Below, piece by piece: positions 9,470 to 53,457 of a DNA stretch of 64,000 bases. This DNA comes from a virus, in the IMG/VR virus record IMGVR_UViG_3300042261_001653, positions 1 to 64,000 of that record; one strand, written 5' to 3'. The position numbers were made by a program, and so were the translations under genes. A model generated the notes under the pieces. The model was not told the origin of the DNA. It saw only the letters and a program-made list of their open reading frames with translations, and did no database searches. Position 1 is the first letter of the stretch. Every line of letters begins with the position of its first letter.

Positions 9470-10013
9470 TCCCAGAATTAATTCTGGGATTCTGGTTATT
9501 TTGCATAAATACTAATTTTGCACTTTCTCATAATGCTTTAGGATAAAGTGCCTCAAGAATATGCGTAAGAGAATTGGTAAGCTTGAATTTGACTGTGGCA
9601 GCCATTGTATTTACCATTTGACCGTCCACGTCGTTTTTTTTGTATTAAATTTCGCAAGCATATGCTCACCTTAGAAAAGCGAGACTTTCTATATACTACA
9701 TTACGAGAACTTGCAAAATCGGTCAACTGCGAAATTTTAGAAATAAATGGAGAAGAAGACCATGTGCATTTCTTATTAAAACATCCACCAACAACCGCGT
9801 TATCTGAAATAGTTGGAAAGCTTAAGAGTAAAAGCTCAAAAGCTTTATTAGACAAATTTGGCTCTTTCTTATACGGCAAGTTGAATCGCACTGTTTGGAG
9901 CAGTGGATTCTTTTTATGTTCCGTTGGTGGAGCCATGATTGATATATTAAAACAATATATTTCTAACCAAGGTTCTTAACCCACCGTAAACGGAGGGATT
10001 GCAGAACCTGCTG
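9470..10013 (+). mobile_element. IS200/IS605-family element carrying only tnpA
   Basis: A perfect 20-bp palindrome at 9470-9489 on the left and a CCC-A-CCG / CGG-A-GGG hairpin at 980-997 past 9000 on the right bracket a Y1 transposase frame. Subterminal hairpins with no terminal inverted repeat and no target duplication are typical of this family. Exact ends are not certain. It is inserted in minus-strand small genes and appears to split one. Confidence 0.55.
9561..9979 (+). pseudogene. tnpA: IS200-like TnpA (Y1 HUH transposase), frameshifted
   Basis: The family start MRKRIGKLEFDCGSHCIYHL is encoded from ATG 9561, but this frame ends at 9674. The rest continues in the -1 frame: CIKFRKHMLT, then GEEDHVHFLL with the HxH motif, and LKQYISNQ with the likely nucleophile Tyr. 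The frames meet at a run of eight T (9634-9641). A -1 slip on this slippery run would give a full-length protein; a one-base sequencing undercall would give the same result. Without either, the gene is dead. Confidence 0.75.
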
Positions 10014-10233: not shown

Positions 10234-10467
10234 TTAACGGGTAATTTGTAATTGGGCTTGCGGCTTTGGTTTAATTTGTGGACTGATATTAAACATATTC
10301 TTTAACTTATCCATCGGGGGCACTTTAGAAAAAGCGCCGGTTGGCGTTGGCTTGGTAAAAATAGTTTTAAGCACACCGCTCATAGGATTGTTGCCTAGCT
10401 GTTTTAACCAGCCAAGCATATCCGATTGCTTTTCCAAAAAGCCACGTATAAACGCTTCCTTATTCAT
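10234..10467 (-). CDS. Small protein with MNKEAF..GF N-terminus (77 aa)
   Basis: It starts MNKEAFIRGFLEKQSDMLGW and then becomes Pro- and Lys-rich. The start overlaps the end of the upstream helicase gene by 8 bp, so the two are translationally coupled. The N-terminal motif is shared with several putative virion proteins in this window and may be a targeting or packing signal (inference). Confidence 0.6.
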   Translation of the reverse strand: MNKEAFIRGFLEKQSDMLGWLKQLGNNPMSGVLKTIFTKPTPTGAFSKVPPMDKLKNMFNISPQIKPKPQAQLQITR

Positions 10468-11896
10468 AATTCTTCAATTGTTCTTGAGCCAGCAATTGTT
10501 CCACTTGTTTATTAAGCTGTTCTTTTTGCTGGGCCAGATTATAGATATACTCGTCGGTTCCACGTCTAGTTTTAGTCCCAAACAACTGAGCGAGTCGACC
10601 AGCCTTAGGTTCAGCTAAATATCTTTGCACCAATACGTTTTGTTTCTCAGGTGGTAAAGCCGCATGCGATTTATATCTAGCCGCACGACCAATTACTTGT
10701 TTTTCACGTGCTTGCTGCCAATGCGGTTCCAGCAATTGTACCAATCTAGTACCACGAAGATCGAGACCTTCGGCACCAGCACTGCTGATCAGCAACGCTT
10801 TAATCTTGTCGGCATTGTATAGCTTAACCATTTCATTGCGTAACTTGTCAGGAATGTCACCAGTAAATACACCGTGAGGAATTTTACTTTTTTCCAATAG
10901 CTGTCGGTAAGGTTCCACACCGGAATTTAAATAGTTGGAATAAACTACGGCTTTATAACTGGGATCTTTTTTATTCTGTTCCTTAAAATAATCGAAGGCA
11001 GCTTGAGCTTTAGCTGACTCTAAATTTTTCTTATTGGTAATGTATTCGAGATTAGAGTCAGATGCTTGACGAGGTCCAGTAAGAAAAAACCGCATACGAT
11101 CTAATTCGGCCTTGTTTGCTGGTAGATTGTATTTTATTTTCATCCTCGTGATCCAGTCAGCTTTGTGCATCAACGTGTTGTACAAATCCGTCTGCTTTTG
11201 GCCCATCGGTATTTTATGTACTTCTTCAGTAACAGCCGGATATTGCTCTTTGGACGCGGGATGGAAATCGACGTATTGATTTAATACTTTTTTAAGCTCT
11301 TCGGTATTTTTTAAGGTGGGTACTTCACCAGGTGTAAACCCTCTAAATTTTTGCCACCAAGTCAATGGGACTTGTTTAGTTCCAGTGTATTGTTTTTCAA
11401 ATTCGATCTTATCCTTGGGTAATACTTCTTTGCCAGCCGCCAGATTAATTAAATTCGCCATGTCGTGTGGATTATTAACGACTGGCGTACCTGATAAGAG
11501 TAACCGCTTCTTGGCTTGGGTTTTTGCTAATTCTTGTTGTAGTCGATTTTCCCGTGTTCGACTACGTTGCGCTTCGTCTACAACCAATAAGCCACCGGGG
11601 CTGTCATAATTACCTAGGCCTTGTCGGGCTACCAGCTCTTGGGATACTAACTTTATATCTTCTGGATGCTTACCTAGCCATTTCTGCATTTCTTTTTCGT
11701 AGTTCTTCTTGAGTGCAGCTGGAGCAACTACGGTGGTTGGCAAGCCTAGTGCTTTATATGCCGCAAGGCTGGCGAGTGATTTACCCGATCCGGTAGAATG
11801 ACTAGCCACTAAACCTGGTTGGTTTTCATTCAGCAACTTATCGACCAACCGTTGCTGATGCGGCTGAAGATTAAAATCAATGTTCTGAGTTGGCAT
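10460..11896 (-). CDS. SNF2-like superfamily 2 helicase/ATPase
   Basis: This 478-residue protein has SF2 motifs in order: LQPHQQRLVDKLL (Q-like), SHSTGSGKSLASLAA (Walker A), LLVVDEAQR (motif II, DEAQ), RLLLSGTPVVNN (motif III), VVYSNY and LISSAGAEGLDLRG (motifs IV-V), KQVIGRAARYKSH (motif VI). The spelling of motif VI reminds me of nucleoside triphosphatases tied to viral transcription (NPH-I type). The gene is divergent from the RNA polymerase locus, so a role in transcription or DNA remodelling is possible, but replication or injection cannot be excluded. A weak TTTAAA/TAAACT promoter precedes the start. Confidence 0.85.
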   Translation of the reverse strand: MPTQNIDFNLQPHQQRLVDKLLNENQPGLVASHSTGSGKSLASLAAYKALGLPTTVVAPAALKKNYEKEMQKWLGKHPEDIKLVSQELVARQGLGNYDSPGGLLVVDEAQRSRTRENRLQQELAKTQAKKRLLLSGTPVVNNPHDMANLINLAAGKEVLPKDKIEFEKQYTGTKQVPLTWWQKFRGFTPGEVPTLKNTEELKKVLNQYVDFHPASKEQYPAVTEEVHKIPMGQKQTDLYNTLMHKADWITRMKIKYNLPANKAELDRMRFFLTGPRQASDSNLEYITNKKNLESAKAQAAFDYFKEQNKKDPSYKAVVYSNYLNSGVEPYRQLLEKSKIPHGVFTGDIPDKLRNEMVKLYNADKIKALLISSAGAEGLDLRGTRLVQLLEPHWQQAREKQVIGRAARYKSHAALPPEKQNVLVQRYLAEPKAGRLAQLFGTKTRRGTDEYIYNLAQQKEQLNKQVEQLLAQEQLKNYE

Positions 11897-11950: not shown

Positions 11951-11956
11951 GTGGAT

Positions 11957-13324
11957 ATGGCATTACAAAAGATCAACGAAGCATTACTACAGGAAATTAT
12001 AGCCAAGTATCAGTCAGATGAAAATTTAAGCCTACTTAAGTTAGGGCAGATGTACAACGTCAATGTTGGAACCATAGAATACCAATTTAAAAAACGAAAA
12101 ATAGTGACACATGCGAAGTTTAAACGAAGCAAAAAATTTACAGAAGAAAAAATACAAGAAGCAATTAAGCTTTATCAAGAAGACGAAACATTAAATTTAA
12201 CTAATCTTGGTAAACGTATAGGATTAAATAGAAAAATACTGCGTCATCATTTTTATATTCGCGGCATACCGATTCGGCAATTGCCATACGGCTATAACCG
12301 TAGAGAAATGCCTGAAGAGTTAATTCAAAAAATGATTCGTAATTATACGGAAAACAAGCAATTAACTTTAACGGCATTAGCTAAAAGCTTTGATCTTCCG
12401 ACTTCTTATGTGTGTAAAGCCTTTAAAGAAAAAGGAGTAGAACTAGACTTAAAACGTGCCACGCATCCCAGACTAGCTGAAGACGAGCAAAAAGAAGTAT
12501 GTCGGTTATACATGACAGGTGTAGGCGCACCTGAGTTATCAAAGAATTTCGATATAGGTCAAGATACGGTTATGAACTATGTTAAGAAACATGGCGGCGT
12601 AGGTCGAACTAGATCACAGCGTATGACCAAATACAGTGTAGATACTTCTTATTTTGAAAAAATAGATACGCATAACAAAGCTTATTTTTTAGGTATGCTG
12701 ATTACTGATGGATATTTAACAAGTACTTCAAGTATAGGTATACAGCTACAAGCGCAAGATCATAACGTACTAGAATTCTTAAGAAACGACATTCAACTTG
12801 AACGGCCGTTGACTTATACAATACGAAAAAACCGTTGGGCTAAAGAAAGAAACGACCAAGGAGTAGCTATGTGTTATTCCTATATATTATCGATAATGAA
12901 TGCAGAGTTATATCAGCAGCTATTAAAATTAGGAATTACACCAAGAAAAAGTTTAACATGTAAATTTCCTTCTTGTGTACCGAAAAAATATCTCATGAGT
13001 TTTTTATGCGGTGTATTCGATGGTGATGGTTCGCTGCCGAAAGAGTATAAGCGTGCAAAGTATAATTTAGTTTTCTATGTTAGCACCGCTTTTGCAGTGG
13101 ATTTAAAAAAAGTACTAGATGCCACTTTTAATATATCTGCGACCGTTAGACAAGTAGGCAAAATCAGCACAGTGTCAGTGTACCGAGAATGTAGCATATA
13201 TCAAATATTGAAGCAGTGCTATGCTAACCTAGACCCTAAAAATTGCGTTCAACGTAAATATTTACGCTTTCTCGAACTACGTAAAAAGCTAATTGAAAAA
13301 GGCCGAATTGCTTCAACCGATTAA
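11957..13324 (+). CDS. LAGLIDADG homing endonuclease with tandem HTH repeats
   Basis: This 455-residue protein starts at ATG 11957; a GTG two codons earlier lies inside the promoter spacing. The N-terminal half shows four helix-turn-helix-like repeats of about 45 residues (SLLKLGQMYNVNVGTIEYQF, NLTNLGKRIGLNRKILRHHF, TLTALAKSFDLPTSYVCKAF, APELSKNFDIGQDTVMNYV). The C-terminal half has both catalytic motifs, AYFLGMLITDGYL and FLCGVFDGDGSL. It probably cuts a specific allele of the neighbouring polymerase locus. It ends inside the promoter of the polymerase gene. Confidence 0.88.
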   Translation: MALQKINEALLQEIIAKYQSDENLSLLKLGQMYNVNVGTIEYQFKKRKIVTHAKFKRSKKFTEEKIQEAIKLYQEDETLNLTNLGKRIGLNRKILRHHFYIRGIPIRQLPYGYNRREMPEELIQKMIRNYTENKQLTLTALAKSFDLPTSYVCKAFKEKGVELDLKRATHPRLAEDEQKEVCRLYMTGVGAPELSKNFDIGQDTVMNYVKKHGGVGRTRSQRMTKYSVDTSYFEKIDTHNKAYFLGMLITDGYLTSTSSIGIQLQAQDHNVLEFLRNDIQLERPLTYTIRKNRWAKERNDQGVAMCYSYILSIMNAELYQQLLKLGITPRKSLTCKFPSCVPKKYLMSFLCGVFDGDGSLPKEYKRAKYNLVFYVSTAFAVDLKKVLDATFNISATVRQVGKISTVSVYRECSIYQILKQCYANLDPKNCVQRKYLRFLELRKKLIEKGRIASTD

Positions 13325-13336
13325 CGTTGATATACT
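13308..13336 (+). promoter_or_regulatory. Promoter of the RNA polymerase fusion gene
   Basis: TTGCTT (13308-13313), a 17-bp spacer and TATACT (13331-13336) are followed by 7 bp and the ATG at 13344. The -35 box lies in the last codons of the upstream homing endonuclease, so the polymerase gene may be transcribed on its own with little or no leader. Confidence 0.6.
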
Positions 13337-13343
13337 TAGACAA

Positions 13344-16316
13344 ATGGATAATACCTATTTAGTCAATTCAGAGTTAAAGTTTGGAAAGCATAAGCACGAC
13401 CTTGAGTTTCCAAAGAGCAACGACTTCTTTTCATTAACCTCGTCACTTATCCCAGGAATAGGTGGCGTTAATGCGGTTAGAGTTTTACTCGGTTCGAAAT
13501 CAGCGGCCCAAGCAATAACTCTAACCAATCGTGAAGCTCCATTGGTGCAAGCCAATGCTGGTGGTGATTCTGAGTCAGCGGTTAAGAAATACGGTAAGTG
13601 GTTATGCATACATGCCGCTGATGACGGGGAAGTAGCGAGCATTACACCCGATGAATTGATTTGTAAGGAAAAAGGCAAGACCAAGGTATACGAGCTGTAC
13701 AACAACTACAACGTGGGTCGCAAAACCTACATGAGTAACTATCCTAAGGTGGCTATCGGGCAACGTTATAAGAAAGGGGATTTGCTCGCCACGTCCAACT
13801 ATACAGACGACAAAGGTCAGCTAGCCCTAGGTATAAATTTAACAACAGCAATCGGTACGGGAAGAAAAGGCGCGGGCTTTGAAGACGCGATAATTTTATC
13901 TACTTCAGGTAGTCGCAAACTACAGTCTGAGCAACAAATTCGGCTGAGTGTAGAAAAAAAGTTTGGAGTCGACGTCAACAAGGGTAGGTACATCTCGCTG
14001 TTTCCCAACCGCTTCTTTAACAAGCAGTTAGATAAAATCGATAGCGACGGAGTAATTAAGGTTGGATCGAAAGTAGAACATGGCGATCCACTAGTCTTAG
14101 CGTTCACTCCTAAGGCCGTAAAAGCCACAGACTTGGCTCTGGGAAAATTGAGTAGCCTATTAAAGAATGCCTATACTGACCACGTAGTAATCTGGGATCA
14201 CGAAGCGCCAGGTGAAATAGTTGATGCTGTAAAAGCTGGCGAGCTTATTTCGGTTAACGTTAGATTCAACAACGCCATGATGGAAGGCGACAAACTCAGT
14301 AATCCCTTCGGCGCCAAAGGAACCGTGAGAATAATTCCAGACGCACAGATGGTTCAGCTTCCAGACGGCACAGTTCCAGATGTATTGCTCAATTCCATGT
14401 CAATTACCTCGCGCGTTGCGCCAGCCCTTGTATTGTCAATGGGCCTAGGTAAGGTTGCGCAAAAGACAGGCAAGCCGCAAATGTTTCCGCAATTTTCGAA
14501 AACTCCAAATTTGGCAGAAGTGGAGAAAACGCTCGAGAAACACGGCGTCAGTGAATTGGAAGAGGTTTACGATCCAATTTCCAATACGCATTTAAAGATG
14601 ACTGTAGGCCCATTGTATTTTACAAGGTTAGTTCACAACGCAGAAGATAAGGTTAGCTATAAATCACAAGGGAGTGGCTATACGCTAGACGCCACGCCAG
14701 GTAAAACAAATGAAGAGGCAACCAAAAGAATAGGTAATTTAGGAACCACGGCATTACTTAGTCATGGCAGTGAAGAGGTACTAAAAGATTTCACATTAAT
14801 TAAATCGCAAAAGAATGATGACTTTTGGCGGGCTATGAAATTAGGCCAGCCTCTTCCTGTACCTAAAGTGCCGCAAATATTTGAAAAGTTTATTGCTTCG
14901 TTACAAGGCGCAGGAATTAAGGTTACGCAGCGAAATAATAAATTTCAACTGCTGCCGATGACCAATCAAGATATTGGTAAGATTTCCAAGCACGCCATTG
15001 ACAATCCACTTACCTACAAGGTTAAAGAAGATCAGTTGATTCCTGAACCGGGCGGCTTATTTGATCCTGAAAAAACAGGTGTATTCGGTAAGGAGTACAA
15101 CCACATTGATTTAAACTTCGCTATTCCTAACCCAATCTCGGAAGACTATTTGCGCAAGGTGTTCAAGGTAACTAAGTCGCAATATGAAAAGATGGTTACT
15201 TCGGGTGAGATTAAACAAAAACTAGAGGCATTGGATTTAACCAAAGAAATAACCAAGTATAAGGAATATCTCAAGTCTGGTCGTAGAACCGACCGTGACG
15301 ATGCAGTAAAGATTCTTGGGTTTTTGCAGACCCTTAAGAAAAATAATATAACACCTAAAGATTTGCTATTGAACAAGTTGCCGGTTATTCCTGCTATTTT
15401 TAGACCAGTGGTTGCGCAAGGTGACATGACATTATCTGCTGATGTGAACTATCTGTACAAGGACATGATGCTGAATAATAATGCTTTGAAAGATACAGCT
15501 AATGTGCCTGAGCACGTGGTCGAGGAATTGAAGAAGAAGCAATATGAAGGTGCCAAAGCAATTTACGGCTTAGGTGATCCAATCAGCGTTAAAAATCAGG
15601 AAAAAGGGTTCAAAGGATTGCTGGCAAAAGTAATAGGGCTAAAAGGTGTCAGTCCTAAAACTTCAATGTTTCAAACCAGCGTAGTTAATCATTCGTTGGA
15701 TTTGGTTGGCCGTGGTGTTGCGACTACAGATGCCACGTTGCATATGGATGAAGCTGGGATGCCTCAAAACTTAATTTGGAGTCTATACAAGCCGTTCATT
15801 ATGCGCAGGTTGGTTCAACGAGGGATACCGGCAACCAAGGCTACGGAGTATATTGATTCGCGCAATCCATTGGCTGTTGAGGCGCTGCATGAAGAATTAA
15901 AAATTCGGCCTGGCATTATTAGTCGAGATCCAGCGTTGCATAAATTTAATCTTATGGGATTTTATTTAAAACCACACGCAGATCCTAAAAATAGTACTAT
16001 AGCATTAAATCCATTAGTATTCAAGGGATTTAGTTTGGACACCGACGGTGATCAAGTTAATACTAATATTCCGGTATTAGAATCAGCACGCCAAGAGGTT
16101 ATAGATAAGATGCTTCCTTCAAAATGCATCGTGCACCATAAGACCATGAGCTTTGCACAAACACCTCAAAATGAAGGAGCTTTAGGGTTATACACGCTCT
16201 CTAAGCCATCCAAAAAAACCAAGGTGCACAAGTTTGCAAATGAAGCAGAGGTAATTAAAGCTTACAATTCTGGTTTGTTGCAACCCGACGATCAGGTAGA
16301 ATTGGCGAATAAATGA
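13344..16316 (+). CDS. RNA polymerase: beta C-terminal part fused to beta-prime N-terminal part
   Basis: This 990-residue protein starts at ATG 13344 (MDNTYLVNSELKF); the frame opens 51 bp upstream with TTG inside the previous gene. The first half follows bacterial beta: SLIPGIGGVNAVRVLLGS (SLIPF..H.DANRALMG), GFEDAIILS, GDKLSNPFGAKG, SITSRVAPALVL, and PKVPQIFEKFIASLQGAGI, the usual beta C-terminus. From about codon 540 it follows beta-prime: PEPGGLFDPEKTGVFGKEYN with HIDL, LPVIPAIFRPV, LYKPFIMRRLV, and the metal-binding loop SLDTDGDQV (Asp codons at 16038, 16044, 16050). It ends just before the beta-prime part encoded at 19204. The catalytic triad is intact. A complete subunit needs three other chains. 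Confidence 0.92.
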   Translation: MDNTYLVNSELKFGKHKHDLEFPKSNDFFSLTSSLIPGIGGVNAVRVLLGSKSAAQAITLTNREAPLVQANAGGDSESAVKKYGKWLCIHAADDGEVASITPDELICKEKGKTKVYELYNNYNVGRKTYMSNYPKVAIGQRYKKGDLLATSNYTDDKGQLALGINLTTAIGTGRKGAGFEDAIILSTSGSRKLQSEQQIRLSVEKKFGVDVNKGRYISLFPNRFFNKQLDKIDSDGVIKVGSKVEHGDPLVLAFTPKAVKATDLALGKLSSLLKNAYTDHVVIWDHEAPGEIVDAVKAGELISVNVRFNNAMMEGDKLSNPFGAKGTVRIIPDAQMVQLPDGTVPDVLLNSMSITSRVAPALVLSMGLGKVAQKTGKPQMFPQFSKTPNLAEVEKTLEKHGVSELEEVYDPISNTHLKMTVGPLYFTRLVHNAEDKVSYKSQGSGYTLDATPGKTNEEATKRIGNLGTTALLSHGSEEVLKDFTLIKSQKNDDFWRAMKLGQPLPVPKVPQIFEKFIASLQGAGIKVTQRNNKFQLLPMTNQDIGKISKHAIDNPLTYKVKEDQLIPEPGGLFDPEKTGVFGKEYNHIDLNFAIPNPISEDYLRKVFKVTKSQYEKMVTSGEIKQKLEALDLTKEITKYKEYLKSGRRTDRDDAVKILGFLQTLKKNNITPKDLLLNKLPVIPAIFRPVVAQGDMTLSADVNYLYKDMMLNNNALKDTANVPEHVVEELKKKQYEGAKAIYGLGDPISVKNQEKGFKGLLAKVIGLKGVSPKTSMFQTSVVNHSLDLVGRGVATTDATLHMDEAGMPQNLIWSLYKPFIMRRLVQRGIPATKATEYIDSRNPLAVEALHEELKIRPGIISRDPALHKFNLMGFYLKPHADPKNSTIALNPLVFKGFSLDTDGDQVNTNIPVLESARQEVIDKMLPSKCIVHHKTMSFAQTPQNEGALGLYTLSKPSKKTKVHKFANEAEVIKAYNSGLLQPDDQVELANK

Positions 16317-17302
16317 ATTATTTAACTGAACAAGATAAACAATACATTATAGAAAATGAAACGAAAATATCCGCCAAAGAATTAGCAGTTAAGTTTAATA
16401 AAAAAGTAGGAGCTATCCATCGAGTATGGCGAAATAAAAACGAACCACGAAAAAGCAACTGGGGAAAGTTTATAAATTTAGATCCAGCGCCAATAATTGA
16501 GACTTATTGCGATGAAGGCTTATCTAAGCTTGAAACAGGTAAAAAACACGGCGTACCTGAGGGAGTAGTTACACGTATATTAAAACAACAGAACATCCCA
16601 ATCCGAGATTTAACTGATTCGCATAAAAAGTACGATCTAAACGTAGACACATTTAAAGAGATCGACACACAAGAAAAAGCTTATTGGTTGGGGTTTTTAT
16701 ACGCAGACGGTTATGTGCACAAAGAACGAGGAGAAGTAAAGTTATGTCTAGCAGATAAAGATTATGGGCATTTAGTTAAATATCAAAAATTCCTGCAATC
16801 GAATATTCCTATTAAATCAGATAAAGGTCCAACCAAAATTTTACATCCTTCCAGCAGACTAACCGTGTGCAACCGCAAATTCACAGATCATTTAATCGAT
16901 AAGGGCTGTACGCAGGCTAAGAGTTTTACCACAGTTTTTCCAACGTGGCTAAAAGAGGAACTAATACCCGCGTTTATTTTAGGCTTAATGGATGGCGATG
17001 GCTGTGTGCGGGTAGCCCAACGGCGCTGTGCCGTGCAGTTTCTTGGAACATATAAAATAGTCCAACCAATCCACGACTATTTGTTAAAGCACGCAATTAT
17101 TAAAACACCAAAACGAGTAATGTTTGACACACAATGTCCTAAGATATATACCGTAAATGTGTATGCCATCGCTGACATCTATGCACTATACGATCACCTC
17201 TATTCACAATGCCCTGTTTGGTTGGATCGCAAGAAAGCTAGGTTCGAAGAGTTTTTTAAGATGCGTGAGAGTTTAGACATTGAGAAAGCAAAGCGTAAAT
17301 AG
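16313..17302 (+). CDS. LAGLIDADG homing endonuclease
   Basis: This 329-residue protein overlaps the polymerase stop as ATGA. The N-terminal 110 residues hold two helix-turn-helix-like units (SAKELAVKFNKKVGAIHRVW, SKLETGKKHGVPEGVVTRIL). Catalytic motifs are AYWLGFLYADGYV and FILGLMDGDGCV. It lies at the point where beta-prime is broken between 16316 and 19204, which fits a gene-splitting role for invading endonucleases. It is related in layout to 11957-13324 but only modestly similar. Confidence 0.88.
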   Translation: MNYLTEQDKQYIIENETKISAKELAVKFNKKVGAIHRVWRNKNEPRKSNWGKFINLDPAPIIETYCDEGLSKLETGKKHGVPEGVVTRILKQQNIPIRDLTDSHKKYDLNVDTFKEIDTQEKAYWLGFLYADGYVHKERGEVKLCLADKDYGHLVKYQKFLQSNIPIKSDKGPTKILHPSSRLTVCNRKFTDHLIDKGCTQAKSFTTVFPTWLKEELIPAFILGLMDGDGCVRVAQRRCAVQFLGTYKIVQPIHDYLLKHAIIKTPKRVMFDTQCPKIYTVNVYAIADIYALYDHLYSQCPVWLDRKKARFEEFFKMRESLDIEKAKRK

Positions 17303-17306
17303 TATT

Positions 17307-17513
17307 ATGGTTACTAGGGAAGAATATTTTGCGGCTTCGCCATTGCAGCAAAGGTTGTGGTTGCTGGAAGCTTTACGGACGTTGGAACAGATATATAAAG
17401 GTGAGCATCCTTTAACGGGTACACGACAAGCTGGTCGAATAGCTTATATACGAAATCAGATGACTCAATTTGTGTTGAACGTAGCTGAATGGACTGAAAA
17501 TGAATTGGCTTGA
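17307..17513 (+). CDS. Small hypothetical protein (68 aa)
   Basis: The start is set at ATG 17307 (MVTREEYFAASPLQQRLWLL), 4 bp after the endonuclease stop. It is helical and Arg/Gln-rich and overlaps the following HNH gene by 14 bp. Function unknown. Confidence 0.5.
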   Translation: MVTREEYFAASPLQQRLWLLEALRTLEQIYKGEHPLTGTRQAGRIAYIRNQMTQFVLNVAEWTENELA

Positions 17514-18234
17514 AAAGATTAACGCCGATTTAAAGAAGGCGAATCGACAAGAATATAATCGAAAATGGCGGGAAGAGCACAAAGACCATATTAGGCGCAC
17601 TTGGGCGGTTTACAAAGAAAAGCACAAAGAGAGGCTCAAACAACAGCGCAGAGCTAAAAATGAAGCTAGGGCTATCGCTGAAGGGCGGGTCTTCAAAACC
17701 AAAGAACAAGGCCAAGCGAATAAAAAAAGAAAACTAGAGCAAAAAGCAGAACGCGCCAGATTGAAAGCGTTAGAAACACCAGAAATAAAACTCGCACGTA
17801 GGTTGCAGCAACTTAAAGATTACAGAGAACGAAACAAAGAACGCATAAAATTACGCGAAAAGCAAAGCCGGCAACGCAGGCGGGAAAAACTTAAAAACGA
17901 TCCAGCGTTTAAATTAAATCATGGCATTTCTAATGGCATACTAAAGGCGTTAAAAAGAAGTAAAAATAGGTATCATTGGGAAAAATTAGTACCATATACT
18001 TTAGACCAATTAAAAGTGCATTTAGAAAACCAATTTGTGGAAGGTATGACGTGGGAAAATCATGGTAAGATTTGGCATATCGACCATATCAAACCTAGAT
18101 GCTCTTTTAATTTTTCTTCGCCGCAAGATGAAGAATTTCAAAAATGCTGGGCTTTAGATAACCTACGCCCTCTTTGGGCCGTAGATAATCTTAAAAAAGC
18201 CATTGAAGATAGAAAACTTAAAGTAAAAAAATAA
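17500..18234 (+). CDS. HNH endonuclease
   Basis: This 244-residue protein has a very basic, probably coiled-coil N-terminal half (many Lys, Arg and Glu) for DNA contact. The C-terminal HNH domain reads WHIDHIKPRCSF, then CWALDNLRPLWAVDNLKKA, the usual H-N-H arrangement. It is a second mobile gene inserted between the two beta-prime coding parts. No zinc-binding Cys pairs are seen. Confidence 0.85.
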   Translation: MNWLEKINADLKKANRQEYNRKWREEHKDHIRRTWAVYKEKHKERLKQQRRAKNEARAIAEGRVFKTKEQGQANKKRKLEQKAERARLKALETPEIKLARRLQQLKDYRERNKERIKLREKQSRQRRREKLKNDPAFKLNHGISNGILKALKRSKNRYHWEKLVPYTLDQLKVHLENQFVEGMTWENHGKIWHIDHIKPRCSFNFSSPQDEEFQKCWALDNLRPLWAVDNLKKAIEDRKLKVKK

Positions 18235-18889: not shown

Positions 18890-19222
18890 ATGGATTTTAA
18901 CGTGCTTAAATCGTTTCTGGAAAAAGCGGCTGCGGCTACCCCAGAATTACAAGATACTGTCGGTCAACTTCAGTCTATGCTGGCTGGACAAAACAAAAAT
19001 CAGCCTACGCCTGAAGGTAAGTCCGTATTGAACCCGGAATTGAAAAAGAAAAAAGAAATTGAAGACATATTTCTTGGAAGCACGTTAAAAGATCTAGATA
19101 AGAAAGAGCAAACGTTATTTGGTCGCCGCCCCAAGATCAAAACTTCCATGCTGCAGATCATTTGCAAAAAGGCTGCAGATAAAGAATCATTGTTACGCAT
19201 TCTATGCAAAAAACTACGGTAG
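18890..19222 (+). CDS. Small basic protein overlapping the beta-prime C-terminal gene
   Basis: This 110-residue protein starts MDFNVLKSFLEKAAAATPEL and ends in a basic helical tail (ADKESLLRILCKKLR). Its last 19 bp overlap the start of the next polymerase gene in another frame, so translation is likely coupled. It may assist or simply accompany the polymerase; no domain is recognised. Confidence 0.55.
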   Translation: MDFNVLKSFLEKAAAATPELQDTVGQLQSMLAGQNKNQPTPEGKSVLNPELKKKKEIEDIFLGSTLKDLDKKEQTLFGRRPKIKTSMLQIICKKAADKESLLRILCKKLR

Positions 19223-21102
19223 GTAAAATACTTCTTAAGTCTCACCTACCCGCCGACCTGCATCCACTCATTGATGAACTGGAGTTGGATAAAAGCGGCA
19301 CAGGTAAATTGCTATCTGCGCTTTACGAGAAGCATCCCAATGACTATGCGACGATTCTATCTAAGTTGCATTTGTTAGGCTTCGATACTTCCGCTAGATT
19401 AGGTTCAACAGTATCCATCGCAGATTTACATTCACCAATCGACAAAGAAAAAGAATTTGCAGCACTTGAAAAAGAGTTGCAAACGGCCGAAAAGCTAGAA
19501 GGTAAGGCCAACCAGGATCGAGAAAAATTAAAGATATTTGGTCAGTTCAACGATCGCATAAATAAAGCCTTGGTTGACGTTGGTGTAGCTAAAGATCAAA
19601 CGCTGTCTAAGATTGTAAAAGCTGGCGCCCGAGGATCACCGACTCAATTAAGGCAGACTATTTTCGCTCCGGTATTGGTAGCGGATCAACAAGGCCACCC
19701 AATTCTAGATAAGCCGATTAAAGCCAGTTATGCTGAAGGCTTAAGTTTACCTGAATATTTACTGTCAGCTTTTTCTGGGCGTGCCGGTTGGGTAGGAACT
19801 AAACTATCCATTGCTGATTCAGGTTTCCTGTCCAAGCAGTTAGCTAGAGGTATCATGCAGCTGCAAGTGGAGGAAACAGATTGCAACACACCTAATGGAA
19901 TTTCAATTAGTGTAGACGATAAAGAATATATAGGTACATTTTTAGCTAAGCCCGCAGGTTCATATAATCGCAACAACGAAGTGACGGCTAAAGTATTGGC
20001 GGATCTACGAAATAAAGGCGTATCTTTTATTGTAGTCCGCAGTCCGATTACTTGCACAGCCAGCAGACATTATCACACAGGGGCTGTTTGTGCCATGTGT
20101 TGTGGTAAGCGTGAAAAAGGATTACCTAAGATTGGTGACTATGTAGGGCTTACTGCAGCCACTGGAATTAGCGAAGGGTTGTCGCAGGGTAGCTTAAGTT
20201 CAAAGCATTCAGCGGGCTCCGTAGCAACCGCAAATGTGGCTTCTGGTTATGACCTAGCTAAACAGTTGCTTGAAATACCTGAAACATTTAAAGGTAAAGC
20301 TGCAACAGCTGCGCATGAAGGTGCAGTAAAAAATATACATACCAATCCTCAAGGTGGTTCAACTATAACCGTAGCCCAGACTGACGGTAAACAAGCTGAT
20401 TATTATGTGCCTACTGGTTTGGCTGCTAAGGTTAAAGTTGGTGACCAAGTTGAAGCTGGAGACGTCATGTCGGAAGGTATTCCCAATCCTTACGAAATAG
20501 TAAAGTATAAAGGAATAGGTGAAGGTCGCAAACATCTAGCCAATGCTCTGCGTGAAGCTGCTGAATCAGGTGGTATATCTGGCGTAAGTAAAAAGAATTA
20601 CGACATTGCTGCTAGAGGCTTATTAGACCACGTATTAATTACTCACCCAGAGGGTTTAGGCGACCATGTTCCAAACTCAATAGTTTCTTATCAAGCTATT
20701 GAAAAAAATTATACGCCTAGGGAAACAGCTAGGAAAACCTTAGTAGACGCAGCCGTAGGTATGTATCTGGAAGAACCAGTACTGCATTTAACCATTGGCA
20801 CCAAAATTACTCGTAAACTAGCCGACTTCTTAAAGAGCCACGGAGTACAATCCGTCATTGCTCATCCGCAGTCACCTGGGTTTGAACCTGAAATGATTAG
20901 GTTAGGCGCATTGCCTGAACACGTTGATGATTGGATGACTGGCTTATATAGTACACATTTGGAACGTAAATTGATGCATGCCGTAAATAATGGAATGACT
21001 TCAGACGTAGAAGGTTATCATCCAGTACCTAGAATTGCTTTTGGGTCTATTGGTGCCAAACGCGCAGAGGAGATAGATCAAGCCCCTTCTTATACGCTCT
21101 AA
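19204..21102 (+). CDS. RNA polymerase beta-prime C-terminal part
   Basis: This 632-residue protein picks up beta-prime where the fusion chain stops: TTVGKILLKSHLP matches the conserved TTVGR.LLNE.LP region. VKAGARGSPTQLRQ is the start of the bridge helix. EGLSLPEYLLSAFSGRAGWV with KLSIADSGFLSKQLARG is the trigger-loop region. ITCTASRHYHTGAVCAMCCG is a Cys cluster, and GISEGLSQGSLSSKHSAG matches GEPGTQLTMRTFHTGG. So bridge helix and trigger loop are in this chain while the metal-binding Asp triad is in the 13344 chain. The two must assemble to form one active site. Confidence 0.92.
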   Translation: MQKTTVGKILLKSHLPADLHPLIDELELDKSGTGKLLSALYEKHPNDYATILSKLHLLGFDTSARLGSTVSIADLHSPIDKEKEFAALEKELQTAEKLEGKANQDREKLKIFGQFNDRINKALVDVGVAKDQTLSKIVKAGARGSPTQLRQTIFAPVLVADQQGHPILDKPIKASYAEGLSLPEYLLSAFSGRAGWVGTKLSIADSGFLSKQLARGIMQLQVEETDCNTPNGISISVDDKEYIGTFLAKPAGSYNRNNEVTAKVLADLRNKGVSFIVVRSPITCTASRHYHTGAVCAMCCGKREKGLPKIGDYVGLTAATGISEGLSQGSLSSKHSAGSVATANVASGYDLAKQLLEIPETFKGKAATAAHEGAVKNIHTNPQGGSTITVAQTDGKQADYYVPTGLAAKVKVGDQVEAGDVMSEGIPNPYEIVKYKGIGEGRKHLANALREAAESGGISGVSKKNYDIAARGLLDHVLITHPEGLGDHVPNSIVSYQAIEKNYTPRETARKTLVDAAVGMYLEEPVLHLTIGTKITRKLADFLKSHGVQSVIAHPQSPGFEPEMIRLGALPEHVDDWMTGLYSTHLERKLMHAVNNGMTSDVEGYHPVPRIAFGSIGAKRAEEIDQAPSYTL

Positions 21103-25996: not shown

Positions 25997-26511
25997 ACAA
26001 AGACGCATTCATTGACGGGTTTGTAAAAGCGGCAACACCTATTGGTTTTTGGGGTGGCCTTTATAATACTATGGCTACCCCATTTGAATGGGCTGGTAAA
26101 TACTTTTCAGGCACTAAACCATTATCTGCAACACATCCTAGCGTTCCTAAAGTTGAAGTAGCGCCGGTAAGGCTTCCAGGTGTGGGGGATTGGTGGAGAA
26201 ACAAAAGCAGCTTTTTTCCTGTAAATACAGAAGGTGAAAAAGAATGGGGTGGTTTAGGACATGCCGCAGGAATTATACAGCAACATCCTGTAGTAAAAGA
26301 CTTAGCTAAATCCTGGGGAGCTTTACCTAACCTAGCTAAATGGCTTATTCCTATGGGCGGTATGGCTTTACTTGGCGGTGCATTTCGTGGTGGTGGCGGG
26401 TCACCTAATATCACAGTAAATGTTCCTCCTGCTGGTGGTGGCAGTATTCCATCTCAAGCTATGTTTAGGACGCCTACAGCAGGTTCAGGGTTTTTCAATA
26501 CTACCCAGTAA
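25993..26511 (+). CDS. Small putative virion protein, MNKDAF..GF family (172 aa)
   Basis: It begins MNKDAFIDGFVKAATPIGFW, matching the starts at 10467 and 10216. It is rich in Gly and Pro, with a glycine-rich hydrophobic run (LIPMGGMALLGGAFRGGGGS) near residue 120. It shares one base with the start of the polymerase beta N-terminal gene. Function unknown. Confidence 0.6.
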   Translation: MNKDAFIDGFVKAATPIGFWGGLYNTMATPFEWAGKYFSGTKPLSATHPSVPKVEVAPVRLPGVGDWWRNKSSFFPVNTEGEKEWGGLGHAAGIIQQHPVVKDLAKSWGALPNLAKWLIPMGGMALLGGAFRGGGGSPNITVNVPPAGGGSIPSQAMFRTPTAGSGFFNTTQ

Positions 26512-27206
26512 TGAACACGGACATTTCACATTTACACGATTTACCTTTGCCGGACCATCTTCGTGGTTTTCATGACCCGGATAAAACTAGGCAGTGGATG
26601 CGCGAGAATGTGGTAAATGCGTTCAACGAACATTTAAATAAAATTGAGACGCCGGACTTTAAATTAAGAGTAAAGAATATCCAAGTAGAGGATCCAAATA
26701 AACGGTTTACTCTAAAAGAGCAAAAGCAAGCGGTATTGGAACGTAAGAGTTTAACCAATACCATTAAAGGTGACATTGATTTGCTTAATAAAAAAACCGG
26801 CGAAGTAACAGGCACCAAGAAAAATACAGTCATTGCGCACCTACCTTGGCTTACGGATAGAAATACAGTTATTCAGGGTGGCAATGAATATCAGCTGCAA
26901 AATCAGCAACGATTAAAGCCCGGCATTTTTACTAGGTTAAAAGAGACCGGTGAAGTAGAAGCGCACTTTAGCCCTGAAGCTGGTTCTGGTTTAGGTGGTA
27001 AGCTTATTATGGATCCAGCTAAAGCTACTTTCGTATATGAAATTGGCTCAGCGCAAGTAGGCTTATACGGCTTCTTAAAAGATATGGGTGTATCTGACGA
27101 GGAGATGAAACAAGCTTGGGGTGACGAAATCTGGCTGGCGAATAAAAAGACTTACAAGGGCAATGAAGTTGACAAGTTCTACGCCAAAGTGTTTTCTTAC
27201 GATTAG
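26511..27206 (+). CDS. RNA polymerase beta N-terminal part (protrusion/lobe)
   Basis: This 231-residue protein contains AHLPWLTDRNTVIQGGNEYQ followed by QNQQRLKPGIF, which matches the beta protrusion signature (IPLMTDRGTFIINGAERV..QL.RSPGV.F). Upstream IDLLNKKTGEVTGTKKNTVI fits L.NKETGE...Q.VFLGD, and downstream LYGFLKDMGVSDEEM fits the lobe entry (LRALG.S.EEI). It ends where canonical beta would continue to the fork region, which is encoded at 38789-39478 on the other strand. It lies about 10 kb from the other plus-strand polymerase genes and is the last gene of a virion operon. Confidence 0.85.
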   Translation: MNTDISHLHDLPLPDHLRGFHDPDKTRQWMRENVVNAFNEHLNKIETPDFKLRVKNIQVEDPNKRFTLKEQKQAVLERKSLTNTIKGDIDLLNKKTGEVTGTKKNTVIAHLPWLTDRNTVIQGGNEYQLQNQQRLKPGIFTRLKETGEVEAHFSPEAGSGLGGKLIMDPAKATFVYEIGSAQVGLYGFLKDMGVSDEEMKQAWGDEIWLANKKTYKGNEVDKFYAKVFSYD

Positions 27207-38788: not shown

Positions 38789-39478
38789 TTATGCCTCAGG
38801 TATTTTAACTGTAGAATTAAGTACCTTGTCGTGTGAAACCCATTCCAAATCACCGTTGTTATTTTTCATCACGCGATACAGTTTTCTATCCCTACCTTTA
38901 GCTACGCCTTGATTAATATAATTCGTTACACCAATACGCGTAGATTCAACAACCAAAGCTGGATCGAAAAATCCAAACGAGCTACTGCTTAGTTGCCGGG
39001 ACTCGTCAGGTATCGCCGATTCGGATATGCCTCCGGTACCTACCTTCGTCACCTTAGAAGAATCACTAAGAATGGCAATTGGATTGATACCTTCTACGGA
39101 ACTGCTAAGCGAGTTACCGATAACTGTAGACCTTAGCTGTGGGGTAAAGAAACCTGAGTGCCACCAGTCCAAATTTCGTTTTTGACGTATTTTAAGCTGG
39201 GCTTTCTTTTGCAGCCTCCCAGCATCCTTGGCGATGTGCTCATGTAAATAATCTTCAAAACCTAGAAACGACGAGAACTTAAGATTGTCGCGATCATCTG
39301 GTTTGGCTTTATTATTGGAGACTGCGATGATTTTTTTCGAGCTATCCAACATCGATTGCAACGAGATACTGGCGTAAGGATGATTTAAAGTTTGACCTGT
39401 AACAGAGGGGTCTAGCCGAGTACCTGCCAACCACTTCTTCAGTTTTTCTATTTTTTCAGCTTTTGTTAGGGTGGACAT
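38789..39478 (-). CDS. RNA polymerase beta middle part (lobe/fork region)
   Basis: This 229-residue protein fits the section of beta missing between the chains at 26511 and 13344. DDRDNLKFSSFLGFEDYLHE corresponds to the DDIDHLGNRRV..V.ELL region. Then VEGINPIAILSDSSKVTKVG with TGGISESAI follows the fork/rifampicin-region pattern NPLSE.THKRR.S.LGPGGL. SSSFGFFDPALVVESTRIGV matches ..HYGR.CPIETPEGPNIGL. The end (RDRKLYRVM) fits the following strand. It is on the minus strand, far from the other parts, and next to an endonuclease gene. No good promoter was found directly upstream. Confidence 0.82.
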   Translation of the reverse strand: MSTLTKAEKIEKLKKWLAGTRLDPSVTGQTLNHPYASISLQSMLDSSKKIIAVSNNKAKPDDRDNLKFSSFLGFEDYLHEHIAKDAGRLQKKAQLKIRQKRNLDWWHSGFFTPQLRSTVIGNSLSSSVEGINPIAILSDSSKVTKVGTGGISESAIPDESRQLSSSSFGFFDPALVVESTRIGVTNYINQGVAKGRDRKLYRVMKNNNGDLEWVSHDKVLNSTVKIPEA

Positions 39479-39544: not shown

Positions 39545-39739
39545 ATGAATATCAATATCGATATCGACGAAAACGATTCTTCACTAACTATGCTTGTAGA
39601 CGATCTGCATTTAATTACGGCTTATACCCATCGAGGAACAGTTAAGTTTAAGGGTTTAGCACCGATTATTGACGATCCATTGTACGACGTACTCACCGCG
39701 ATTGCCCAACAGTTATTGTCTTTGTGTAAGAAAGATTAA
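39545..39739 (+). CDS. Small hypothetical protein (64 aa)
   Basis: The start is set at ATG 39545 (MNINIDIDENDSSLTMLVDD); an upstream ATG at 39488 is less likely. The protein begins with an acidic beta-like strand and ends in a helix (ALTAI-like LTAIAQQLLSLC). It overlaps the end of the convergent endonuclease gene by 4 bp. TTGTGC and TATAAA lie upstream with a 15-bp spacer. Function unknown. Confidence 0.5.
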   Translation: MNINIDIDENDSSLTMLVDDLHLITAYTHRGTVKFKGLAPIIDDPLYDVLTAIAQQLLSLCKKD

Positions 39740-40998
39740 TAGTCGTGGATAACCAGTTCAGCTACTTTGCCTTTTTTAAAGGCAAGCCAGTCAGATTCCC
39801 AAATGTATTTAACCGCATACCCCATTTCTTTTATTTTTTGAAAACGAGCAAATGTGCGGTCATACAATTCTTGAAATGTTTTTTGAGCTATTTTGTTAAT
39901 ACTGGTCATGGTATAACAGCGAGGATTTCCGTGGAAGTAGTCACCTAGATATTCTACAACCGTGTTATTTTGTTTGTTTAAGCTGTCCACGGTTAGATCT
40001 TTAGTTAGCATTATTTGTCTATCTTCATCTGGTATTTTTAAATAGTTTAAACATAAAATTTCCTGTTTTGAAATACGTATACATTTTCTAGAAGCCCTAG
40101 CACAAAGTGTACAACCATGACCCTTAAGCAGAGAGCGCACAGCCATTTTAAATCTGTAATTGTGTTTTTTACATGTCACTGTTACCGGATAACTTAATCC
40201 TCGATATTCAGTTATTTCTCTAAAATCATACTTATCACCGTGGATATTTTTAAAATTATCGAGTATACCTTCCAACGTCCAAGCTAATTGCGCTTTTGTC
40301 CTTTTTGCAATATTGCAAATTTTACACCCTGTTGCTTTGGATAATAATTGGTTACCAGTTACATAAAACACACCGTGCGTTTTGCATTTAATAGGTAATT
40401 TTACTTTATTGCCAGGCCAATGTGTAATTAAGCCGTAATCATACACCTCGCCATGTACTTTTTTAATCGCTTCGATAAAAGAATCAAGAGTATGCCTTAT
40501 TCGTTTCGTACCTTTCATCGATTTATGTGGATTTCCACAAGTGGGACAACCATAAGCTGAATTTACGTGTGCTTGTGGGCGAATAAAAAAGTACCCGTGT
40601 AATGGACAGCCTATTTCTACTTTAGTGACCGTGTTTTTATACTCGGTACGACTATAATCAAACTTTGTGCCATGCTTTAATTTTGCTCGTTGGATGTATT
40701 CTTCGTTAGTAACTTTTCGACAATTTCTTAATTTTCCTTCTCGTGATAATTTAGGTATTTCTTTTATTGCTGATAAATCTATTTTTGTTAAATGTGACAT
40801 ATACCGACACCGTGGACAACCTGTGCGGCGTCCATCTATATGCTTTTTAGGCAGTATAAAAAAAGGACCGTGAGCAGGGCATTGAATTTCGATTTTTGTT
40901 TTGCTGTCTACTATGTTTACTTTATTATACAAATAACGATCTCCGTATATTGCTTTAGCTGTAGCGACGAACTCTTCGGTACTTAATAACTTAGCCAT
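39736..40998 (-). CDS. Homing-type endonuclease with four zinc-ribbon repeats
   Basis: This 420-residue protein has four repeats of the form F...A...HG.KYDY...Y......I.C..HG.F...P..H......CP.C, each about 75 residues. The C-terminal 100 residues hold VVEYLGDYFHGNPRCY and YDRTFARFQKIKEMGYAVKY followed by IWESDW, which resembles the Vsr/EDxHD-type nuclease fold of phage homing enzymes. GGAGGG 8 nt before ATG is a strong Shine-Dalgarno. It lies next to the beta middle gene, so it may have taken part in splitting the polymerase. Confidence 0.8.
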   Translation of the reverse strand: MAKLLSTEEFVATAKAIYGDRYLYNKVNIVDSKTKIEIQCPAHGPFFILPKKHIDGRRTGCPRCRYMSHLTKIDLSAIKEIPKLSREGKLRNCRKVTNEEYIQRAKLKHGTKFDYSRTEYKNTVTKVEIGCPLHGYFFIRPQAHVNSAYGCPTCGNPHKSMKGTKRIRHTLDSFIEAIKKVHGEVYDYGLITHWPGNKVKLPIKCKTHGVFYVTGNQLLSKATGCKICNIAKRTKAQLAWTLEGILDNFKNIHGDKYDFREITEYRGLSYPVTVTCKKHNYRFKMAVRSLLKGHGCTLCARASRKCIRISKQEILCLNYLKIPDEDRQIMLTKDLTVDSLNKQNNTVVEYLGDYFHGNPRCYTMTSINKIAQKTFQELYDRTFARFQKIKEMGYAVKYIWESDWLAFKKGKVAELVIHDY

Positions 40999-45100: not shown

Positions 45101-45246
45101 GCATTGTTACTGAAGAAGACGAAGCCAAATATCAGGCTTTAATTGCTGGGTATAAACCAGTCGATTATAAGAAGCTGAAAGAGCTGGAAGATACTACGAC
45201 AGCCATGGATACGATAGCTTGCAGCGGTGGGGCTTGTACCATTTAA
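42160..45246 (+). CDS. nrdJ: Class II (B12-dependent) ribonucleotide reductase with intein
   Basis: The reading frame is 1028 residues, of which 317 are an intein (residues 386-702). The spliced enzyme would be about 711 residues, close to the monomeric Lactobacillus-type enzyme. Visible features: NCSMRHLDSIRTFAEIMFLS and MSGCGIGIGL near residue 100-130, the catalytic Cys in NP-CAEIVTIP restored at the splice joint, CVKPSGTVGIVLQTSSGIHP, and the C-terminal redox pair ACSGGACTI. The start follows AAGGA at the right distance. The enzyme makes deoxynucleotides independent of oxygen, using adenosylcobalamin from the host. It ends next to a hairpin-rich convergent gene. Confidence 0.93.
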   Translation: MDKNKNTEAVLGVNFLAEMSKFTFASKYARYNPAAERRETWLECVGRTEAMHLNKFKKVLSKEDLKRVERAFDAVREKHVVPSMRSLQYAGPAIQANELRLYNCSMRHLDSIRTFAEIMFLSMSGCGIGIGLYKKYINRLPDLVNAEDKTGTIITYVVEDSCEGWSDSFEALLNCYMKNTAYTGRKIVFDYSRVRKAGTPLKTSGGKAPGHKGLKNAHVKIKERLDYIIEELNLKRMRSIDIYDILMHCVDATLSGGSRRSATIVLFDKDDTDMLQAKTNFTVSKHTRFVLDKDIQRWCGRVTINKKKYEVELTDYEYNEMLLKHNQISWIHIEPQRARSNNTIRLIREETTQAEVDALVEHTKMYGEPGFFFANKGAEDALVNPCLPGSATLITQTGVTTMKDIQVGDKIWSAEGWTTVIQKWNNGIKPVFKYNTTAGTVVATENHKFVSKGEKVEIKDCDSLDLLTNTVTAPVVWDPQDVMDGLVFGDGCRNAKQPYLIIGKNDQDYFNSEITHLIKNGKNLNYTVATTVTNEELPHTYDRVIPDRFICASLSKIAGFLRGLFSANGSAHSKRISFKTSSNKLKEQVILMLSCLGIKCYSTTNKPIWVTFSNGRYLCKQSYDINIYDRKGFSARIGFLQRYKNEILTEAIAFAETSKKAIRNKTTYDIFETTALGEQEVFDIAVDNQSHTYWSDGFNVSNCAEIVTIPVTKDGVCGVQNCNLTEINGKALTNQEDLIKAAENAAIIGTLQAAYTKFKYLGNASREITEEEALLGISITGLLDNPKICLNEEYLTTAAQWACATNELWAKKLGINPAARLTCVKPSGTVGIVLQTSSGIHPHHANKYFRRIQCNKHDPVFQYFKKHNPHMVEESVWSANKTDEVVTFPIYVNGETIVKKDLTALQHMEIIKKVYNAWVKPGTSKYNKKPITHNISCTVLVKDEEWADVSKYMYANRDAFTAISFLPALGDKLYKQAPLESIVTEEDEAKYQALIAGYKPVDYKKLKELEDTTTAMDTIACSGGACTI
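43315..44265 (+). other. Intein within NrdJ
   Basis: The intein begins with Cys1 in CLPGSATLITQTGVTTMKDI (block A) and ends HTYWSDGFNVSN before the +1 Cys of the host protein. Block B fits GTVVATENHKFVS with T..H. A LAGLIDADG-type endonuclease domain is indicated by DGLVFGDGCR and FLRGLFSANGSA; the second motif has Asn in place of the usual Asp, so cutting may be weakened. It sits directly before the catalytic cysteine of the reductase, so the enzyme is inactive until splicing. Confidence 0.92.
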
Positions 45247-51381: not shown

Positions 51382-51801
51382 TGGTGGATGCGACCGGGGG
51401 TTGCACCCGGTGTCCATACGACTTAATCTGCCTTCACTACAATCTTAGTTTATTTTTATCTCGGAAAATCTAGTTAATAAACAAACTGTGTATTTTCCTA
51501 GTTGCTTAAGTTTCGGTTAGCCAATCACAACACTTAGCACCTACATCTGTTAAAATGACGGAGATAAAAAATAACAGGTACTTTATTATCTACGGGCAGT
51601 AACTCAAGCTACTGCGACTTGGGAGTTTGTTACTTCCTGAGGAAAGAACACGCCGTCTACCTCATGCATCGCAACAAAACTAACCTTCTCTGGATTATAA
51701 GAGTTGGCATTTGATTTTCGATCACCTTTTAACGAGGCCAAGTGATCAACCTCGGATTGCGAAGTACAAATGCTCATCGTGTGTCGAATCTACACGCACC
51801 C
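51382..51801 (-). ncRNA. ssrA: Transfer-messenger RNA (tmRNA)
   Basis: A 420-nt minus-strand RNA. The 5-prime end GGGTGCG (51795-51801) pairs with CGCATCC (51386-51392) as acceptor stem, followed by ACCA ending encoded CCA at 51382. GTAGATTCGACAC near the 5-prime end and CCGAGG with PK1 (GAGG/CCTC plus GATCAC/GTGATC) are diagnostic. The T-arm CCGGGTGCAACCCCCGG has TGCAACC as loop, unlike the usual TTCAANC. The tag reading frame (51604-51708) starts GCC AAC, so the tag begins A-N-S-Y-N and ends Q-V-A-V-A before TGA, 34 residues, long for a tag. Confidence 0.93.
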
Positions 51802-53423: not shown

Positions 53424-53429
53424 GAAGAC

Positions 53430-53457
53430 AACATACCCGCTAACTTTGCTTTGTCAA
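53430..53457 (-). promoter_or_regulatory. Sigma70-like promoter, leaderless layout
   Basis: On the minus strand TTGACA (53452-53457), a 16-bp spacer and TATGTT (53430-53435) are followed by 6 bp and ATG 53423. It matches the layout of the 5201 promoter base for base in spacing. Confidence 0.75.

What the first reader, a model, noticed from the sequence alone, without database searches (positions are those of the whole stretch)
13344..16316. Natural fusion of the beta C-terminus to the beta-prime N-terminus with the rest detached
Seen: the chain passes from a beta end (PKVPQIFEKFIASLQGAGI) to a beta-prime start (PEPGGLFDPEKTGVFG) with no stop around 14.9 kb. Known: full-length beta-beta-prime fusions exist (Helicobacter, some phages). 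Here only the two facing halves are fused, making one chain with the beta catalytic loop and the Asp triad. The result looks like a circularly permuted split of a single-chain ancestor.
Basis: partly seen in the sequence, partly recalled or inferred. Interest (0 to 1): 0.8.

Follow-up and report, generated by a model that had tools for sequence, protein, structure and literature searches.

The report
Phage RNA polymerase in four pieces
This phage makes its bacterial-type RNA polymerase from four separate proteins, cut at unusual places while the normal boundary between the two big subunits is fused; relatives run from one single chain through two and three pieces to four, so it bears directly on how split viral polymerases arose.

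Summary
ORF 13344-16316 (+) is one intact chain holding the C-terminal half of β and the N-terminal half of β' of a bacterial-type RNA polymerase, joined directly with all catalytic residues kept. The same join occurs in more than 150 phage contigs, so it is not an assembly error. Together the four pieces cover a full β-β' chain. About 30 other contigs carry the stand-alone βN2 piece; four were shown to carry all four pieces. Relatives form a series: about 75 single-chain enzymes, a two-piece clade (β+β'N | β'C; Salmonella phage Arash, Vibrio phage D69), a three-piece pair and the four-piece clade. Rooted on bacteria, every broken form is nested in one clade (support 99-100). Best reading: stepwise fission of a single-chain ancestor, with pieces scattered on the genome and reassembling non-covalently. 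'Circularly permuted' is not supported. Homing endonucleases flank the pieces in the window but not in most relatives, so the cause of fission is open.

The parts
26511..27206 (+). βN1: first piece of the polymerase (231 aa), equivalent to E. coli β about 40 to 235
   Evidence: Local HMM of relatives' β N-halves, E 6e-45, model positions 6-206 of 478; A1 profile E 1e-89; A1 matches bacterial β in PDB
38789..39478 (-). βN2: second piece (229 aa), equivalent to E. coli β about 400 to 615 (rifampicin-region side of β)
   Evidence: Local HMM E 3e-43, model positions 221-451; A2 profile E 8e-97; A2 matches E. coli β 421-653
13344..16316 (+). βC-β'N fused chain (990 aa from ATG; alternative TTG start 13293): both double-psi barrels, β catalytic lysines and β' Asp triad
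   Evidence: AlphaFold2 model pLDDT 86, pTM 0.78; Foldseek best matches are bacterial β chains, E 4e-39
14910..14957 (+). β|β' junction: last β strand and first β' strand form a hairpin (model residues 525-530 and 533-538), no linker domain
   Evidence: (HMM 988 = E. coli β 1340, HMM 1002 = β' 30)
19204..21102 (+). β'C: fourth piece (632 aa), equivalent to E. coli β' from about 565 to the C-terminus
   Evidence: Pfam Rpb1_5 1e-15; PHROG 25354 positions 602-1100; profile A4
11951..13324 (+). LAGLIDADG homing-endonuclease-like gene ending 19 bases before the βC-β'N ATG
   Evidence: Pfam LAGLIDADG_3 1e-6; PHROG 4645 endonuclease 7e-45
16313..17302 (+). LAGLIDADG homing-endonuclease-like gene, start overlaps the βC-β'N stop codon
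   Evidence: Pfam LAGLIDADG_3 6e-9; PHROG 4645 5e-47
17500..18234 (+). Endonuclease-VII/HNH-like gene between βC-β'N and β'C
   Evidence: PHROG 1035 endonuclease VII, weak, 1e-4; no Pfam match
39736..40998 (-). Homing-endonuclease-like gene (DUF723) 258 bases upstream of βN2, same strand
   Evidence: PHROG 681 endonuclease 2e-53 and 559 HNH; Pfam DUF723 3e-15

Best explanation
The phage encodes one bacterial-type (β/β' double-psi-barrel) RNA polymerase descended from a single-chain phage polymerase in which β ran directly into β'. In this lineage the chain has been cut into four separately encoded polypeptides: βN1, βN2, βC-β'N and β'C. The cuts fall in variable loops: between β 231 and 421 (where E. 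coli carries a lineage-specific lobe insertion), near β 613-625, and near β' 550-566. The canonical β|β' boundary stays fused. The four chains very probably fold together non-covalently into a normal two-barrel core: the fused chain brings both catalytic barrels in one piece, β'C adds the rest of the β' side, and βN1+βN2 rebuild the lobe and protrusion. Shown: the four genes, their complementary coverage, conserved catalytic residues, purifying selection, recurrence in independent genomes, and the nested order on the tree. Inferred: non-covalent assembly, transcriptional activity, and stepwise fission followed by relocation of the genes.
For: The four ORFs tile a 2,059-position full-length model: 1-219, 221-452, 457-1446, 1444-2056. 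Independent genomes G001, G007, G008 and G009 have the same pieces; G009 has a fifth interruption inside the DxDGD motif. About 30 contigs have a stand-alone βN2 of 227-243 aa. The four-piece forms are one clade (SH-aLRT 100). All forms with two or more pieces are one clade nested among single-chain forms when rooted on five bacterial rpoB+rpoC (99 and 100). About 75 contigs encode a single chain. pN/pS is 0.17-0.24 in the pieces of G001 versus G009, βN1 and βN2 included. No intron at gathering score and no intein at the window's piece ends. Catalytic residues invariant. Confident fold with bacterial β as nearest structure. One polymerase set per record searched.
Against: Assembly and activity are not shown. 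Single-chain monophyly is not rejected (AU p = 0.159), so the direction one to two rests on a long-branched outgroup plus parsimony; rejoining of the two-piece form into one chain is not excluded. The record is a linear 67.8-kb fragment, so other subunits or a second polymerase could lie outside it.
Confidence: 0.8

Rival explanations
1. Homing-endonuclease genes caused the cuts (genes in pieces, as in phage Aeh1 nrdA and T4 topoisomerase): an endonuclease gene inserted into the coding sequence, the two halves kept working as separate proteins, and the endonuclease was later lost or moved.
For: In the window all four free-standing endonuclease-like genes found sit within 1 kb of an RNAP piece, three of them within 260 bases of a piece end. 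G001 has an endonuclease VII gene abutting βN2 and an HNH-like gene after βC-β'N; G007 has DUF7487/Vsr-like genes abutting βN1 and βC-β'N; G009 has a weakly matching LAGLIDADG gene about 300 bases after βN1. Precedents: PMC2988022 (split nrdA is functional), PMC11620839 (a homing endonuclease of phage PA3 targets the phiKZ virion RNAP gene).
Against: Among 32 stand-alone βN2 loci only G001 (plus the window) has a detected endonuclease within 300 bases of βN2. The endonucleases belong to unrelated families in different genomes, as expected of later settlers. G008 and the three-piece phages show none at the cuts. The query set for the wider scan was small and was chosen partly from the flanks themselves.
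Confidence: 0.3
2. Inteins fractured the gene: split inteins first allowed the halves to separate and be rejoined by protein trans-splicing, and the intein parts were lost once the halves could assemble unaided.
For: The family is full of inteins. L244 has what looks like a textbook split intein in β (98-aa N part 'CFLAGT...', 40-aa C part '...LVSN|S') with an unrelated gene between the halves. L028/L032/L036 have an intein interrupted after 13 aa inside the Asp triad.
Against: Intein sites in the family (model positions about 346, 400, 586, 921, 1358-1362, 1790) differ from the window's cuts (219, 452, 1447), which lie in variable loops. No intein remnant at any window terminus.
Confidence: 0.12
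3. The split is ancestral and the single chains are later fusions (the pre-LUCA many-subunit view of phage polymerases).
For: Argued for jumbo phages in PMC7824862. Single-chain monophyly is not rejected here.
Against: Rooted trees nest all split forms inside single-chain lineages, with the four-piece clade deep inside. The bacterial outgroup has uncut β and β'. Pieces join at matching ends with almost no overlap. The cut at position 452 occurs in two separate lineages (AU p = 0.008 against one clade).
Confidence: 0.08
4. Assembly artefact or frameshift joining two genes at 14.9 kb.
For: None found.
Against: The same in-frame join is in more than 150 contigs and in sequenced phages Salmonella phage Arash and Vibrio phage D69.
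Confidence: 0.01

Closest known systems
RNAP of Salmonella phage Arash (gp206 + gp216) and Vibrio phages D69, D148, D181
   Same: Same family; direct β-β' fusion; same β' cut at about β' 550-566 (checked in Arash and D69); about 30% identity
   Different: β is whole in Arash and D69, so two pieces (1,525 + 606 aa in Arash) instead of four
phiKZ/AR9-type jumbo-phage multisubunit RNAPs
   Same: β and β' encoded in several genes (at least four for nvRNAP, five for vRNAP); β' cut after the double-psi barrel (PMC7598289)
   Different: There β and β' parts are on different chains; here βC and β'N are fused and β is cut into βN1|βN2|βC. No phiKZ-group record among the listed protein hits
Helicobacter-type full-length β-β' fusion (own knowledge)
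   Same: β C-terminus joined to β' N-terminus
   Different: Cellular and uncut; the single-chain phage members here (L076 and about 75 others) resemble it in layout, the window enzyme does not
Aeh1 nrdA and T4 topoisomerase genes-in-pieces (PMC2988022)
   Same: Phage enzymes cut into separately encoded chains that reassemble, with endonuclease genes nearby
   Different: One cut per gene; here three cuts, pieces scattered over 26 kb and one inverted

Membership tests
Bacterial-type multisubunit (β/β') RNA polymerase | β and β' domains with two catalytic Lys and DxDGD triad | tested here: met
phiKZ/AR9 jumbo-phage split RNAP | β' cut after the DPBB domain | tested here: met
   Cut at about β' 550-566; the cyanobacterial cut lies roughly 20 residues further on
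phiKZ/AR9 jumbo-phage split RNAP | β and β' parts on separate polypeptides | tested here: not met
   βC and β'N are one chain
phiKZ/AR9 jumbo-phage split RNAP | Two RNAPs per genome (virion and non-virion) | tested here: inconclusive
   One set in each of 8 records, but records may be fragments
Helicobacter-type full β-β' fusion | Whole β and whole β' on one chain | tested here: not met
   Window has four pieces; met in single-chain relatives
HEG-created genes in pieces | Homing-endonuclease gene at the cut | tested here: inconclusive
   Present at several piece ends in the window, G001, G007, G009; absent at βN2 in most other contigs
HEG-created genes in pieces | Pieces reassemble into active enzyme | not testable with these tools
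   Needs biochemistry
Intein-fractured genes | Split-intein halves at piece ends | tested here: not met
   No intein at window termini; met in relative L244
mReC phage RNAP (PMC7481178) | Separate β and β' subunits on two chains | tested here: not met
   Fused and cut differently; whether relatives here are among the mReC contigs was not tested

The most novel reading that the evidence does not exclude
One phage family preserves every stage of the breakup of a single-chain RNA polymerase (one, two, three and four pieces, plus trans-splicing intermediates). If so, many-piece viral polymerases can be products of repeated gene fission rather than relics of a pre-LUCA many-subunit enzyme, and the same loop is cut independently more than once.
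Probability: 0.6. Interest if true: 0.85.

Novelty: new variant of a known kind. Interest (0 to 1): 0.74.

Why it matters
Whether the split polymerases of large phages are ancient or derived is disputed: PMC7824862 argues for pre-LUCA relics, PMC7598289 cites a proposal of splitting by mobile introns. A family with intact, two-, three- and four-piece members, all alignable and rootable, makes this testable by phylogeny. It also gives a natural set of places where an RNA polymerase can be severed and still, presumably, work, while showing that the β|β' boundary need not be a boundary at all.

Tried and rejected
phrog_24349 search of the own record found only βC; a first β N-half HMM was built with a wrong cut column and found nothing, and the corrected one found βN1 and βN2. 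Group I/II intron explanation: no Rfam intron in the window or in L244, L252, L270, L280, L287. Intein remnants at window termini: none. Genome-contig scan for cellular or prophage copies: alignment query unusable, single-protein query found no relatives. Profile search with A2 on viral contigs unusable; replaced by A7. Sigma factor: none in the own record, weak sub-threshold hits in three relatives. L270 (frame change at the 452 loop) was considered as a recent cut but a single-base sequencing error is not excluded. L280 has many collinear ORF fragments, likely sequence errors. No paper on phage Arash in the library; no paper found on single-chain β-β' phage polymerases of this kind.

Full report
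Observation. The ORF at 13344-16316 (+) is intact and matches, in order, Rpb2 domain 6, Rpb1 domain 1 and Rpb1 domain 2. Aligned to E. coli-type subunits, model position 988 equals β residue 1340 and position 1002 equals β' residue 30, so the last β strand runs almost straight into the first β' strand. In the AlphaFold2 model (pLDDT 86.3, pTM 0.78; 37-sequence alignment A5) these strands form a confident hairpin at residues 525-538. Nearest solved structures are bacterial β chains. The two catalytic lysines, the β' arginine and the Asp triad are invariant among 37 relatives.

Where the rest is. β'C is 19204-21102. An HMM of relatives' β N-halves found two more pieces: βN1 at 26511-27206 (+), E 6e-45, and βN2 at 38789-39478 (-), E 3e-43. 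Against a 2,059-position model of the whole chain the four window pieces cover 1-219, 221-452, 457-1446 and 1444-2056. They tile the enzyme with no loss and almost no overlap. Order in the window is βC-β'N, β'C, βN1, βN2 (inverted). No chain has permuted order inside it, so 'circular permutation' does not apply.

Independent genomes. G001 (L003, 51% identical) has βN1, βN2, βC-β'N and β'C as four genes. G007, G008 and G009 have the same set, with βN1 and βN2 convergent in each. G009 and its near-copies L028/L036 have an extra interruption inside the catalytic motif. A scan with βN2 sequences of this clade found 32 contigs with a stand-alone βN2 of 227-243 aa, not counting L280. Between G001 and G009 pN/pS is 0.17-0.24 for every piece (synonymous sites saturated), so all are under purifying selection.

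The family. A scan of IMG/VR gave 325 relatives. Among the nearest 80 plus phage isolates, most have β+β'N in one gene of about 1,450-1,530 aa (longer with inserts) and β'C apart, as in Salmonella phage Arash and Vibrio phage D69. L041 and L048 have three pieces, with β cut at position 452. A second scan from the other side of the family gave 71 complete single chains, mostly 2,000-2,200 aa (up to about 2,900 with inserts), and nine contigs that are truncated or not classed. The β|β' boundary is fused in every complete member; none with it cut was seen.

Order of events. Trees of βC-β'N-β'C (86, 43 and 53 rows) make the four-piece forms one clade (100) and the three-piece forms one clade (100). 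Rooted on bacterial rpoB+rpoC from five records, all forms with two or more pieces are one clade (99 and 100) and single-chain forms are basal. Grouping three- with four-piece forms is rejected (AU p = 0.008), so the cut at 452 probably arose twice. Single-chain monophyly is not rejected (p = 0.159), so the first step, one to two pieces, rests on rooting and parsimony.

Where the cuts are. Position 219 lies between E. coli β 231 and 421, the region of the large E. coli lobe insertion (own knowledge of the structure); relative L035 carries a 2H-phosphoesterase-like domain inserted at the same place. Position 452 is β about 613-625, a variable loop. Position 1447 is β' about 550-566; the cyanobacterial rpoC1/rpoC2 cut is roughly 20 residues downstream. 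From known RNAP structure (own knowledge), lobe and protrusion are each built from both βN1 and βN2 segments, so these two must come together.

Cause of the cuts. In the window four free-standing endonuclease-like genes were found and all lie within 1 kb of an RNAP piece. G001, G007 and G009 also have endonuclease-like genes at or near piece ends, but of unrelated families. The wider sample does not show this at βN2: apart from the window only G001 of 32 loci. Phage precedents exist: PMC2988022 (split nrdA works) and PMC11620839 (an endonuclease that targets an RNAP gene). I therefore treat the endonuclease route as possible, not shown. Inteins are common in the family but sit at other sites. 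L244 shows that a β chain of this family can be fractured by an apparent split intein with another gene between the halves. L287 has a βN1|βN2-like cut near position 250 with stop and start overlapping in place, which suggests that fission can precede relocation.

How it works. Most likely four chains assemble non-covalently into a normal core, as for phiKZ-type nvRNAPs and split NrdA. Assembly, promoter use and role in infection are inferred. Weak sigma-like hits occur in three relatives, none in this record. A SNF2-type helicase gene (10460-11896, -) lies beside the polymerase; helicase genes are also near it in L003, L005 and Arash, and SNF2 helicases are linked to RNAP genes in jumbo phages (PMC7824862).

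Limits. G000 is a linear 67.8-kb fragment. Hosts are unknown. Trees are 'quick' searches on divergent proteins. The library holds only open-access papers, so prior description of the single-chain family cannot be ruled out.

Noticed in passing
L244: 4332-7355 and 9269-10660: Apparent naturally split intein in the RNAP β chain (98-aa N part ending ORF1, 40-aa C part starting ORF2) with an unrelated phage gene between the halves; implies protein trans-splicing of a viral RNA polymerase.
   Followed up: partly
L028/L032/L036: about 12640-14444: Intein inside the β' catalytic motif (GAD|SDGDQ) whose frame is broken after 13 residues; identical in three contigs; candidate atypically split intein with a very short N part.
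   Followed up: partly
L068, L082, L102 and similar L092, L094 (insert at model position about 571): In-frame insert in RNAP β resembling the phage inorganic-pyrophosphatase domain (PF18823 E 1e-36 in L068, weaker in L102 and L082; L092 and L094 by eye): a polymerase with a pyrophosphatase-like domain built in.
   Followed up: partly
L134-L213: Large group of single-chain β-β' phage RNAPs, mostly 2,000-2,200 aa.
   Followed up: partly
L287: 4105-6635: β cut in place near model position 250 with overlapping stop/start (TAATG) and a further end at 451; looks like an intermediate of fission.
   Followed up: partly
window 13344-16316, model positions 1035-1065: The β' zinc-ribbon region between E. 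coli β' about 64 and 149 is almost absent.
   Followed up: no
window 42160-45246: Ribonucleotide reductase gene interrupted by an in-frame LAGLIDADG-bearing intein-like insert.
   Followed up: no
window 51382-51801 (-): tmRNA gene in a phage record (Rfam RF00023, 112 bits).
   Followed up: no
starts of RNAP pieces in window, G001, G007, G008, G009: No clear Shine-Dalgarno; several starts are preceded by TAAT (...TAATATG), suggesting a host with SD-independent initiation.
   Followed up: no
window 53422-54729 and 9605-9979: TnpB-like gene (Cas12f1-like TNB domain) and a separate IS200 TnpA-like ORF (the latter judged by eye).
   Followed up: no
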